DNA of 64,000 nucleotides from Pseudomonas sp. MYb118 (GTDB lineage Bacteria > Pseudomonadota > Gammaproteobacteria > Pseudomonadales > Pseudomonadaceae). Shown here piece by piece: positions 1 to 26,353 of this stretch. Numbering within the stretch: position 1 is the stretch's first letter; each line of letters starts with the position of its first letter. The notes beneath the pieces are model-generated. The model ran no database searches. It was not told the origin of the DNA and saw nothing but the letters and a program-made list of their open reading frames with translations. Where the stretch lies: NCBI RefSeq assembly GCF_040947875.1, contig NZ_JBFRXN010000002.1, positions 1,550,001 through 1,614,000 of the forward strand, read 5' to 3'. Made by a program: the position numbers and the translations under genes.

Positions 1-2
1 AG

Positions 3-821
3 GGCATGGATCACAGCCAGATGAAGAGCATGGATCATTCCCAAATGCAGGGCATGGATCATAGCCAGATGCAGGGGATGCAGCCCGCCAAGCAGCAGGG
101 TCGAACTGAGAGCCGAACTCCAATACCCCCAATTACAAATGCTGAGAGAGCCGCAGTTTATAAAGCTCCTGGCGGCCATGAGGTTCATGACACCGCTCTT
201 AACTCGTATTTCATTTTCGAAAAATTGGAATGGCAGGATGCTGATGAAGGAAGCGCGCTGAACTGGGAAGCTCAAGGTTGGATAGGCGGTGACGTGGATC
301 GTCTATGGTTGCGTTCTGAAGGCGAGCGCACCAATGGGAAGACAGAGGAAGCCGAGATTCAAGCTCTGTGGGGGCACGCTATCAGCCCTTGGTGGGATCT
401 CGTCGGAGGGGTTCGTCAAGACTTCAAACCAGGTGATCCACAAACGTGGGCGGCTTTTGGCATCCAGGGCTTGGCGCTCTACAACTTTGAAGCCCAGGCT
501 ACTGCTTATCTGGGCGAAGGTGGCCAGACTGCGGCGCGGCTGGAAGGAGACTACGACATCCTTTTGACCAATAAGCTCATTTTGCAACCTACTGCAGAAT
601 TCAATTTTTACGGGAAAAACGATCCCCAGCGTGGCATTGGCTCCGGGTTATCAGAAAGTGAGATTGGTCTGCGGCTCCGGTACGAGATCCGTCCACAATT
701 CGCTCCTTACGTGGGCGTAACCTGGAATCGTAGTTATGGAAAAACGGCTGACTACGCCAGCGAGGAAGGCGAAGACAATAACGAAGCACGCCTGGTGCTA
801 GGCGTTCGGGTCTGGTTCTAA
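3..821 (+). CDS. copB: Copper resistance protein B (CopB), C-terminal part, cut by window edge
   Basis: Outer-membrane copper-binding protein of the cop system. The reading frame is already open at the left edge, so the signal peptide and the first part of the Met/His-rich region are missing. What remains opens with tandem DHSQM units (three copies in the first ~25 residues), the kind of repeat that binds copper in CopA/CopB. About 200 residues of the CopB beta-barrel domain follow, with alternating aromatic strands and a terminal phenylalanine (VRVWF end) typical of outer-membrane proteins. It precedes copC by 73 bp, giving the classic copABCD order; copA would be to the left of the window. 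Family assignment is strong; the true start cannot be given. Confidence 0.9.
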   Translation, partial: GMDHSQMKSMDHSQMQGMDHSQMQGMQPAKQQGRTESRTPIPPITNAERAAVYKAPGGHEVHDTALNSYFIFEKLEWQDADEGSALNWEAQGWIGGDVDRLWLRSEGERTNGKTEEAEIQALWGHAISPWWDLVGGVRQDFKPGDPQTWAAFGIQGLALYNFEAQATAYLGEGGQTAARLEGDYDILLTNKLILQPTAEFNFYGKNDPQRGIGSGLSESEIGLRLRYEIRPQFAPYVGVTWNRSYGKTADYASEEGEDNNEARLVLGVRVWF

Positions 822-894
822 ACCAGAGTTAATGGCACCAAAAAAATAATTACTCAACCTCATTACAACAGCTATGCGCTGTGAGGAGCCTTGC

Positions 895-1278
895 ATGTCG
901 TTCTTGAAATCCTGCGTAGTGGCTGTCGCTCTTTCATCCGGTATTTTGCTGAGCTCGGTCGCTCAAGCTCACCCGAAGCTGTTGTCTTCGACTCCGTCAG
1001 AAGGCGAATCCGGTGCGGCCCCTTCCAAAATCGAACTGCATTTTTCCGAAAACCTGGTTACCCAGTTCTCTGGTGCCAAGCTGATCATGACTGACATGCC
1101 AGGCATGCCGAATTCACCTATGGGCGTCAAAGCCAGCGTAGCAGGCGGAAATGATCCGAAGACCATGGTAATCACGCCTTCATCACCCCTGACAACGGGC
1201 ACCTACAAAGTAGAATGGCGGGCGGTATCGTCCGACACTCATCCAATTACCGGTGCCGTAACTTTCAAAGTGAAATAA
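895..1278 (+). CDS. copC: Periplasmic copper-binding protein CopC
   Basis: 127 residues. A Sec signal peptide (MSFLKSC to SVAQA) is followed by a mature protein beginning HPKL. The Cu(II) site is present: the N-terminal His and the D-x-H of SSDTHPITG near the C-terminus. In the Met-rich Cu(I) loop, Met40, 43, 46 and 51 (mature numbering) are present, but position 48 is Asn where I remember His in the P. syringae protein. Start chosen at ATG 895, which has GAGGAG about 8 nt upstream; an earlier in-frame ATG at 874 would put residues before the signal peptide. CopC binds copper in the periplasm and is thought to pass it to CopD, whose gene begins 2 nt after the copC stop. Confidence 0.95.
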   Translation: MSFLKSCVVAVALSSGILLSSVAQAHPKLLSSTPSEGESGAAPSKIELHFSENLVTQFSGAKLIMTDMPGMPNSPMGVKASVAGGNDPKTMVITPSSPLTTGTYKVEWRAVSSDTHPITGAVTFKVK

Positions 1279-1280
1279 GC

Positions 1281-24598: not shown

Positions 24599-24754
24599 CA
24601 TTCCCATCTCGCATTCCCATCTCGCATTCCCATCTCGCATTCCCATCTCGCATTCCCATCTCGCATTCCCATCTCGCATTCCCATCTCGCATTCCCATCT
24701 CGCATTCCCATCTCGCATTCCCATCTCGCTTGCCCATCTCGCTTGCCCATCTCG
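24599..24754. repeat. 13-bp minisatellite, 12 copies
   Basis: Ten exact consecutive copies of CATTCCCATCTCG (24599-24728) followed by two copies of the variant CTTGCCCATCTCG (24729-24754). The unit length is not a multiple of three, so it is unlikely to be coding. It lies between the recombinase operon and the comM junction. Confidence 0.97.
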
Positions 24755-25007
24755 CTGCCTTAGTACAGTAGCCATCCAAGATTCAAGTACGCGGATTTCG
24801 CTAGGCTGCTCGTCGATCATGACGATATTTGCACTCCACACCCCCGCCCCATCTACAGAACTTCTTAGATCTGCTTGCTGGGTCATCTCGATCCTCATCT
24901 CCAGCAAAAGCCGCCAGTTATCGCAGCGACAACACTCCAGTTTGGGTCACTGGGAATCCCTTGGGATCATCGAAACTTTATTGGTTAATTAGGGCTGGAC
25001 TGGAAGG

Positions 25008-25042
25008 TGTCCATATGGACATTTGTACTCTAGATGTCCATA
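25008..25042. repeat. Inverted repeat next to comM junction, candidate recombinase attachment arms
   Basis: TGTCCATATGGACA (25008-25021) is a perfect 14-bp palindrome. Its right half extends to TATGGACAT (25014-25022), which is repeated inverted as ATGTCCATA (25034-25042) across an 11-bp spacer. Recognisable comM coding sequence starts only ~13-20 bp further on. Paired inverted arms beside a junction are what tyrosine recombinase core or accessory sites look like; the exact crossover point is not visible without the left end. Confidence 0.55.
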
Positions 25043-25054
25043 CCCCGGTATTGA

Positions 25055-26353
25055 CCTGTAAATCTGGCGCCAGCGGACTTGCCCAAGGATGGCGGGCGCT
25101 TCGACCTGGCCATTGCCCTGGGGATTCTGTCGGCGAGTGTACAGGTGCCGACCTTGACCCTGGATGACGTGGAGTGCCTGGGCGAGCTGGCGTTGTCCGG
25201 CGAGGTGCGGCCAGTGCGCGGAGTGTTGCCGGCGGCCCTGGCGGCGCGCAAGGCCGGGCGAACGCTGGTGGTGCCGCGGGCGAATGCCGAGGAAGCCTGC
25301 CTGGCTTCCGGTCTGCAGGTGATCGCGGTGGACCACCTGCTGCAAGCGGTGGCGCATTTCAACGGGCATACGCCGGTTGATCCTTATGTCTCGGACGGCT
25401 TGATCCATGCGGCCAAGCCCTACCCCGACCTCAAAGAGGTGCAGGGGCAGTTGGCCGCCAAGCGGGCGCTGCTGATCGCCGCTGCCGGGGCGCATAACCT
25501 GTTGTTCAGCGGTCCACCGGGCACCGGCAAGACCTTGCTGGCCAGCCGGTTGCCGGGGCTGCTGCCACCGCTGGCCGAGCATGAAGCCCTGGAGGTGGCG
25601 GCAATTCAGTCGGTGGCCAGCGGCGCGCCGCTGACCCACTGGCCGCAACGTCCGTTCCGCCAGCCACACCACTCGGCATCAGGGCCGGCGCTGGTCGGTG
25701 GCAGTTCAAAACCGCAGCCGGGGGAAATCACCCTCGCCCACCATGGCGTGTTGTTTCTCGATGAGTTGCCGGAGTTCGATCGCAAGGTATTGGAGGTGCT
25801 GCGCGAGCCGCTGGAGTCCGGCTGTATCGTGATTTCCCGGGCGCGGGAGCGGGTGCGCTTTCCGGCGCGCTTCCAGTTGGTGGCGGCGATGAACCCTTGC
25901 CCTTGTGGGTATCTGGGCGAACCCAGCGGCAAATGCAGTTGTACCCCGGACATGGTGCAGCGCTATCGCAACAAGTTGTCGGGGCCGCTGCTGGATCGTA
26001 TTGATCTGCACCTGACTGTCGCACGGGAAGCTACGGCGCTTAACCCTGCCGCCAAGCCCGGCGATGACAGTGGCAGCGCATCGGCACGGGTCGCAGATGC
26101 CCGGGAGCGACAGCAGAAACGTCAGGGCTGTGCGAACGCCTTTCTTGATTTGCCGGGGTTGCGGCGACACTGCACGTTATCCACAGCCGATGAGCATTGG
26201 CTGGAAACGGCTTGCGAACGATTGACCCTGTCGCTGCGCTCGGCGCATCGGCTGCTCAAGGTGGCACGCACGTTGGCGGACCTTGAGCAGGTTGAGGAGA
26301 TCACGCGGGAACATCTGGCGGAGGCATTGCAGTATCGGCCGGCGACTCAGTAA
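25055..26353 (+). pseudogene. comM: comM (yifB) truncated by the island: AAA+ ATPase, 5' end missing
   Basis: Frame opens after a TGA at 25052 and reads VNLAPADLPKDGG, the conserved segment at about residue 70 of ComM/YifB, then continues to the normal C-terminus. Walker A FSGPPGTGKTLLASRLPG, Walker B VLFLDELPEF, a Cys segment (NPCPCGYLG, GKCSC) and the Mg-chelatase C-terminal domain are intact. The first ~70 codons and the start are absent; the earliest usable start is a TTG at 25079. ComM is a hexameric branch-migration helicase needed for natural transformation. comM is a known insertion target, for example for AbaR islands in Acinetobacter. The codons before CTGGCGCC (GTA AAT) are AT-rich compared with the rest, so the junction is at about 25043-25063. 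Confidence 0.9.

What the first reader, a model, noticed from the sequence alone, without database searches (positions are those of the whole stretch)
1..25063. Genomic island with copper resistance and defence cargo integrated in comM (yifB)
comM starts abruptly at the conserved VNLAPADLPKDGG segment with ~70 codons missing, and everything to its left is accessory. comM is a recognised integration hotspot for other element types (AbaR islands in Acinetobacter), but here the nearest recombination genes are three tyrosine recombinases. A recombinase trio using comM as target would be notable. The alternative is that a Tn7-like element carries the trio as cargo.
Basis: partly seen in the sequence, partly recalled or inferred. 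Interest (0 to 1): 0.75.

Follow-up and report, generated by a model that had tools for sequence, protein, structure and literature searches.

The report
Mobile element splitting the comM gene
A 41-kb mobile DNA element carrying copper, arsenic and phage-defence genes has inserted at one exact spot in comM, a Pseudomonas gene linked to uptake of foreign DNA, and the same gene is broken by several kinds of mobile element in the genus.

Summary
comM is cut at codon 67; its 5' part lies 41.1 kb to the left, outside the window, and no second comM was found. The insert is not Tn7-like. [quoted passage not shown] IntA, Tfp and Srap are 35, 29 and 37% identical to the published SE-PaeBT2436. The ends are imperfect inverted repeats with the SE 6-bp signature. 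A related element (94-98% identical in its long shared blocks) sits at the same base of comM in Pseudomonas sp. NFR16, although the comM flanks are only 73-78% identical; it lacks the copper module. Of 298 Pseudomonas genomes 17 hold a Tfp homologue; in 7 of these the SE lies inside comM, at three positions, all with a comM-type 6-mer beside intA and a foreign one at the far end. comM is split in 44 of 298, also by Tn7-like and serine-recombinase elements. The window's intB is interrupted by an in-frame stop, so this copy may be stuck. A new SE member; comM as a main SE target is the newer point.

The parts
1..11486 (+). copper module: end of copB, copC, copD, DUF411 gene (on -), copper-type two-component system, outer-membrane/CusB-type/CusA-type efflux genes; copA and the start of copB lie left of the window (L007)
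   Evidence: Pfam and NCBIfam hits; absent from the NFR16 copy
12015..14703 (-). Gabija anti-phage system, gajB (12015-13112) and gajA (13105-14703)
   Evidence: PADLOC hits 7.6e-138 and 2.3e-206
16376..18072 (.). sce7726-family gene (16376-17011, +) and beta-protein gene (17008-18072, -), candidate defence pair
   Evidence: NCBIfam NF033832, Pfam PF14350, PADLOC cll and beta
18987..19442 (-). srap, 151 aa
   Evidence: 37% identical to WP_023443007.1, the Srap named for SE-PaeBT2436
19402..21249 (-). intB, main open frame, 615 aa, large tyrosine recombinase with GMRRGEL, HQLR, HRDTSMTRYY
21265..21459 (-). 5' piece of intB: start codon overlapping the tfp stop, 64 codons, then an in-frame stop; an open copy exists in NFR16
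21456..23090 (-). tfp, 544 aa, recombinase-like without canonical box I and HxxR
   Evidence: 29% identical to WP_034039553.1; motif scan; structure model too poor to use
23087..24436 (-). intA, 449 aa, tyrosine recombinase
   Evidence: PF00589 1e-12; R248, H374, R377, H410, Y419 conserved in the alignment
24598..24755 (+). array of a 13-bp unit (12.2 copies) between intA and the element end
25035..25060 (-). element end C (intA side), TACAGGTCAATACCGGGGTATGGACA on the - strand
   Evidence: imperfect inverted repeat of the far end C' TAAAGGTCATCAATGAGGGGTATGGACA at L006:7959 onward
25061..25066 (+). 6-bp spacer AATCTG of attL, the host's own comM bases
   Evidence: same 6-mer in 13 of 38 comM sequences uninterrupted there; far-end spacer AACGTC in 0 of 38
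25061..26353 (+). 3' part of comM, codon 68 to stop

Best explanation
The island is a 41.1-kb strand-biased circularizing integrative element (SE) of a divergent subfamily. IntA and IntB (tyrosine recombinases), with Tfp and Srap, act on the end motifs C and C' and insert a circular copy at a fixed 6-bp spacer in a conserved stretch of comM (codon 67). The host's 6 bp stay beside C (attL) and the 6 bp brought by the circle come to lie beside C' (attR). comM is cut after codon 67 and very probably lost. Shown here: gene set, ends, spacers, the same site in a second species, no other comM. Inferred from published SEs: circle formation by one-strand exchange and replication (copy-out/copy-in) and the role of each protein. 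The window's copy has an interrupted intB and may no longer move by itself.
For: Gene order and catalytic residues; neighbouring Tfp/Srap with the accessions that the SE paper gives for SE-PaeBT2436, 29% and 37% identical to ours; ends and spacers; same base of comM in NFR16, element 94-98% identical in its three long shared blocks, comM flanks 73-78%; 7 of 17 Tfp-bearing Pseudomonas genomes have the SE inside comM, all 7 with a comM-type 6-mer at attL and a 6-mer not seen in 33-38 comM sequences at attR.
Against: Core proteins are only 29-37% identical to the labelled SE. The Tfp keeps an H...Y-like stretch and its model is poor (mean pLDDT 52.5), so the Tfp fold is not shown. intB is interrupted in this copy. 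Both copies share the attR 6-mer AACGTC, which needs a common donor outside comM under the SE rule; none was found. Movement itself was not tested.
Confidence: 0.85

Rival explanations
1. It is a GInt: a genomic island with ginABCD, which also has three recombinase-type genes and a small fourth one, circularizes and integrates site-specifically.
For: Same number of genes at one end of a large cargo island; metal resistance cargo is known in GInts; median GInt size (34.9 kb) is nearer to 41 kb than median SE size (15.7 kb).
Against: In GInts ginA and ginB are catalytic and the third, GinC, is not; here the second gene is the non-canonical one and the third is catalytic and large. Tfp and Srap match the labelled SE pair. 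No GInt protein was at hand for a direct comparison.
Confidence: 0.05
2. A Tn7-like transposon inserted in comM and carries the trio as cargo.
For: Tn7-like elements do sit in comM of other Pseudomonas, at codons 76 and 283, and Tn6022 targets comM.
Against: No Tns/Tni domain among 30 insert ORFs scanned against Pfam; the trio lies at the very end; no 5-bp duplication: the two 6-mers at the junctions differ (AACGTC, AATCTG). A few small ORFs were not scanned.
Confidence: 0.02
3. The two copies share the site because one comM::element region passed between species by homologous recombination, not because the element inserted twice.
For: Both have identical 6-mers at both junctions, and AACGTC is not a comM word.
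Against: The comM flanks are 78% (5') and 73% (3') identical right up to the element, whose long shared blocks are 94-98% identical; crossovers would have to fall within a few bases on both sides.
Confidence: 0.1
4. For the wider pattern: comM is only a conserved, dispensable landing site; its loss gives the elements nothing.
For: Breaks recur at conserved stretches; Faure et al. read the Walker B target as a conserved anchor; most Pseudomonas are not known as naturally transformable (recalled).
Against: At least three recombination chemistries hit many separate positions of the same gene; in Acinetobacter comM loss lowers transformation with heterologous DNA (PMC11472951, passages). No control gene was counted here.
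Confidence: 0.45

Closest known systems
[quoted passage not shown]
   Same: Gene order intA-tfp-intB-srap, two catalytic recombinases of which one is large, imperfect inverted end repeats, 6-bp fingerprint/footprint pattern, specific target, size within the published range (6.4-58.5 kb)
   Different: 29-37% identity (IntA, Tfp, Srap); Tfp of 544 aa, below the 550-aa limit that the authors used to drop fragments; comM as target is not in the main text; intB interrupted in this copy
GInts (PMC5385486)
   Same: Three recombinase-type genes plus a small one at one end of a cargo island, site-specific
   Different: Order of catalytic and non-catalytic genes; targets named in the parts read are an ABC transporter gene, ssb and a ribonucleotide reductase gene
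Tsy transposon (YRec, HTH, TnsF, optional GIY-YIG; PMC10293859)
   Same: Tyrosine-recombinase transposon that inserts in comM
   Different: No Tfp; targets the Walker B region (codon 298 here) while this one sits at codon 67; no inverted repeats detected by its authors
AbaR/Tn6022-type islands in comM of Acinetobacter (PMC10293859, PMC11472951, passages)
   Same: Resistance and defence cargo in comM; loss of ComM
   Different: Tn7-like transposition guided by TnsF, another position in comM

Membership tests
SE | Operon intA-tfp-intB-srap at one end, in this order | tested here: met
   ends at window 25060 and L006:7959
SE | IntA and large IntB with RHRY residues, Tfp without | tested here: met
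   IntA and IntB boxes present; Tfp lacks box I and HxxR but keeps an H...Y-like stretch
SE | Tfp has a recombinase fold | tested here: inconclusive
   AlphaFold2 mean pLDDT 52.5
SE | Tfp and Srap homologous to those of named SEs | tested here: met
   29% and 37% to WP_034039553.1 and WP_023443007.1
SE | Imperfect inverted repeats of 13-19 bp at the ends | tested here: met
   9 of the first 12 bases equal here, then a second matching stretch GGGGTATGGACA after a length difference; 8-12 of 12 in the seven comM SEs
SE | attB 6 bp kept beside C in attL, foreign 6 bp in attR | tested here: met
   7 of 7 comM SEs; static evidence only
[quoted passage not shown]
   needs PCR and sequencing
SE | All four core genes open (for an active copy) | tested here: not met
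   intB has an in-frame stop after 64 codons in the window; open in NFR16
GInt | ginA, ginB catalytic, ginC non-catalytic in third place, then ginD | tested here: not met
   second gene is the non-canonical one
RIT | Three recombinases of 315-410 aa, all with catalytic tyrosine | tested here: not met
   449, 544 and 615 aa; the RIT definition is from the SE paper
Tn7-like | tnsA/B/C or tniA/B/Q genes and a 5-bp target duplication | tested here: not met
   none among 30 ORFs scanned; junction 6-mers differ
[quoted passage not shown]
   extra Tfp gene, insertion at codon 67, Walker B at codon 298; TnsF was not at hand for a direct comparison

The most novel reading that the evidence does not exclude
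SEs have evolved comM targeting more than once (codons 67, about 79 and about 349, in either orientation), so that comM is the main SE attachment gene in Pseudomonas. Together with Tn7-like, serine-recombinase and other elements they disrupt comM in about 15% of Pseudomonas species representatives, because an inactive ComM protects an integrated element from removal by transformation with DNA of element-free relatives.
Probability: 0.4. Interest if true: 0.8.

Novelty: new member of a known kind. Interest (0 to 1): 0.6.

Why it matters
A 2024 study of Acinetobacter asked why ComM should be targeted for inactivation by mobile elements (PMC11472951, passages). The census here carries that question to Pseudomonas (44 of 298 genomes, recurrent positions, at least three recombination chemistries) and makes it testable in harmless laboratory strains. 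It also gives seven naturally inserted SEs with exact ends in Pseudomonas, where the SE authors could mostly not find the termini, and seven static confirmations of their 6-bp rule. The pair window/NFR16 shows one SE with the same ends, core, arsenic and defence genes, with and without a copper module.

Tried and rejected
Tn7-like origin of this insert: rejected (see rivals). GInt: my first idea from a trio plus a small gene; dropped when the catalytic residues showed the SE order. First reading of the junctions, with spacers GTCTAA and GTAAAT next to AGGTCA: rejected, because relatives lack six of the joined bases (for example 304 bp against a 310-bp query); in the final reading both ends are equally far from the spacer and the string of relatives is kept. 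A one-base offset in the first spacer count was corrected. Tfp structure: mean pLDDT 52.5, not used. Solved-structure searches with IntB and IntA: 0 hits each. Close IntA relatives in the GTDB contigs: 1 (NFR16); among 398 Pseudomonas genomes own and NFR16 only. Tfp protein search: 12 hits; a 96% cluster stands for 79 member sequences, named Pseudomonas, but without context, so their sites are unknown. comM specialists as one clade: not shown; the codon-79 SEs are long, unresolved branches.
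Full report
OBSERVATION. The window lies at G000:C2:1550001-1614000 of a 6.58-Mb genome whose relatives are Pseudomonas (named relative). The N-terminal half of the comM ChlI domain is at C2:1533812-1533973 and the rest at C2:1575058 onward. The two flanks join in frame into a 497-aa ComM with Walker A at codon 218 and Walker B at codon 298. Three further ChlI hits are full frames of 473, 824 and 845 aa (RadA/Lon-type by size, my recall), so no spare comM was found. The 5' remnant runs into a stop at the junction, so comM is very probably null.

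THE INSERT. It is 41,102 bp, C2:1533959-1575060. From left to right: a 398-aa ORF without Pfam hit, an HTH gene, a metallophosphatase, HAD and GNAT genes, an arsenic cluster (arsR, arsB and an arsH-like FMN reductase by Pfam; arsenate-reductase-like ORFs by my reading of the translation, not scanned) and a flavin-type oxidoreductase; then copA, copB, copC, copD, a copper-type two-component system and a cusCBA-type efflux set; Gabija gajB/gajA; a beta/sce7726 pair; and the recombination genes at the right end. No Tns/Tni domain appeared among 30 insert ORFs scanned against Pfam (10 each); a few small ORFs of L006 and L007 were not scanned.

RECOMBINATION GENES. IntA (449 aa) and IntB (main frame 615 aa) show the catalytic boxes; the middle protein (544 aa) has SMNLSDAAGL where box I should be and no HxxR, though an H...Y-like stretch remains. 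A 151-aa gene follows. This is the SE order (intA, tfp, intB, srap), not the GInt order; the definitions come from the papers. The plasmid stretch L030 carries WP_034039553.1 and WP_023443007.1, the Tfp/Srap pair that the SE paper gives for SE-PaeBT2436. Our IntA, Tfp and Srap are 35, 29 and 37% identical to the genes there; IntB was not measured one to one. In tblastn 90 plasmid records hold a Tfp relative and 96 an IntB relative, every best place under 60% identity. The ten near relatives of our Tfp that I aligned are 543-552 aa long, nine of them under 550 aa; two more hits, of 496 and 431 aa, were not aligned. The SE paper dropped Tfp subjects under 550 aa as truncated, so this subfamily may have been passed over there (inference).

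INTERRUPTED intB. A start codon overlapping the tfp stop opens intB, but an in-frame stop follows after 64 codons; the 615-aa frame starts downstream. The NFR16 copy is open over this stretch (mechanical frame of 721 aa). The window's copy may thus be immobile or depend on restart; unknown.

ENDS AND THE 6-bp RULE. Junctions: CACTTTG|AACGTC|TAAAGGTCATCAATGAGGGG... and ...CCCCGGTATTGACCTGTA|AATCTG|GCGCC. The intA-side spacer AATCTG occurs in 13 of 38 comM sequences uninterrupted at this place (the window's and NFR16's own loci left out); the far spacer AACGTC in 0 of 38. This is what the SE model predicts: host 6 bp stay in attL, brought-in 6 bp land in attR.

SECOND COPY. Pseudomonas sp. NFR16 (NZ_FNYJ01000005.1, equal to G152 contig 4 by length and position) has a 36.9-kb relative at the same base of comM with the same two 6-mers. 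The three long shared blocks (12.6, 6.1 and 4.7 kb) are 97, 94 and 98% identical, three short ones (0.34-0.46 kb) 84-91%; the comM flanks are 78% (5') and 73% (3') identical. NFR16's element gave no tblastn hit for copA, copB, copC, copD, copR or cusA, and did for arsB, arsH, gajA, gajB, sce7726, beta, srap and intA. So the element most probably entered the same site of two species separately. The shared attR 6-mer is not a comM word, which under the SE rule points to a donor outside comM; I did not find one.

SEs IN comM ACROSS PSEUDOMONAS. 17 of 298 genomes (one per species, own included) hold a Tfp homologue at E <= 1e-20. In 7 of the 17 it lies inside the gap between two comM parts: G000 and G152 (codon 67), G059, G101 and G119 (codon about 79), G057 and G070 (codon about 349). 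In seven others comM is uninterrupted (G030, G056, G065, G105, G166, G214, G234) and in three it is split elsewhere from the Tfp gene (G049, G170, G254). In G059 the comM parts are 5.7 kb apart with, among frames of 120 aa or more, only the four core genes between. For all seven SEs the intA-side spacer is a 6-mer found at that place in other comM genes (13 of 38, 21 of 38, 17 of 33 or 5 of 33), and the far spacer is found in none. The ends match in 8-12 of their first 12 bases. intA faces the 3' part of comM at codon 67 and the 5' part at the other two sites. In the Tfp tree the codon-67 pair and the codon-349 pair are each one group with full support; the codon-79 SEs are long unresolved branches, so the number of separate origins is not settled. 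Chance placement of 7 of 17 in one 1.5-kb gene is about 8e-22, with related pairs treated as independent, which overstates it.

comM AS A GENERAL TARGET. ComM was searched in the other 297 genomes and the rows tallied by hand with own: parts on one contig but apart in 34, on different contigs in 10 (together 44 of 298, 15%; the ten could include mere assembly breaks); one part only in 4, no match in 2 incomplete genomes, one frameshift, 247 with an uninterrupted copy. Breaks recur at codons about 65-67, 75-84, 209-226, 280-284, 300-304, 315-327 and 344-350; single ones lie near 120, 260 and 445. Identified: Tn7-like at codon 76 (G279: TnsA-type, rve/Mu-C, TniB, TniQ) and 283 (G149 by Pfam; G029 and G193 by similarity); large serine recombinases at codons 65 (G073), 212 (G032; six more by similarity) and 320 (G200; two more); three integrase-domain proteins at 120 (G277); at 303 two large ORFs without family plus an integrase (G285, G048). 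The other split genomes were not classified. Six genomes with broken comM have unbroken RadA-sized ChlI frames (own, G059, G073, G101, G152, G279), a very small control; no proper control gene was counted, and related species are not independent.

MECHANISM. Shown by sequence: site, ends, spacers, gene set, two closely related copies in different species. Inferred from the SE paper: a circle formed by one-strand exchange and replication, then insertion leaving the 6-bp footprint. That losing ComM helps the element is a hypothesis; in Acinetobacter comM loss lowers transformation with heterologous DNA and may hinder removal of mobile elements (PMC11472951, passages).

LITERATURE SEEN. PMC5385486: parts 1-3 of 6. 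PMC10214605: outline, part 1 of the background, all results, discussion, passages. PMC10293859: passages and two sections. PMC11472951, PMC12637031, PMC8649781, PMC12595487: passages only. All others: search listings. That comM is an SE target was not found with searches; the SE paper's main text does not hold the word comM, and its supplements were not seen.

VERDICT. A new, divergent member of a known kind, at a target not tied to that kind in what I read; the wider comM pattern is the more interesting part.

Noticed in passing
L108:151-6444 (G285) and L107:1209-7493 (G048), comM codon about 303: Two large ORFs (776 and 697 aa in G285, no Pfam or PHROG hit; 23-25% identical counterparts in G048) beside a 457-aa integrase (PHROG hits), in comM just past Walker B. 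Possibly Tsy-like or an undescribed set.
   Followed up: partly
L111:2586-7567 (G277), comM codon about 120: Three adjacent proteins with Phage_integrase hits (374, 682, 627 aa; the 682-aa one below the Pfam cut-off) next to the comM 3' part, no detectable similarity to the window's trio in blastp at 1e-6.
   Followed up: partly
G232 C34, G236 C1, G251 C1: Uninterrupted comM with a second 3' fragment 4-6 kb downstream, as if an element had brought a replacement end and restored the gene.
   Followed up: no
G024, G073, G101, G210: comM in three pieces, as from two insertions in the same gene (pieces of G101 and G210 lie on more than one contig).
   Followed up: no
window 24598-24755: 12 copies of a 13-bp unit (GCATTCCCATCTC) between intA and the element end; NFR16 differs here.
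   Followed up: partly
L026 (NZ_CP047312, P. putida plasmid): A quartet of the SE kind sits close to another set of large recombinase-type genes on one conjugative plasmid.
   Followed up: no
G191 and G211: Only a C-terminal comM part was found in two genomes listed as 99-100% complete.
   Followed up: no
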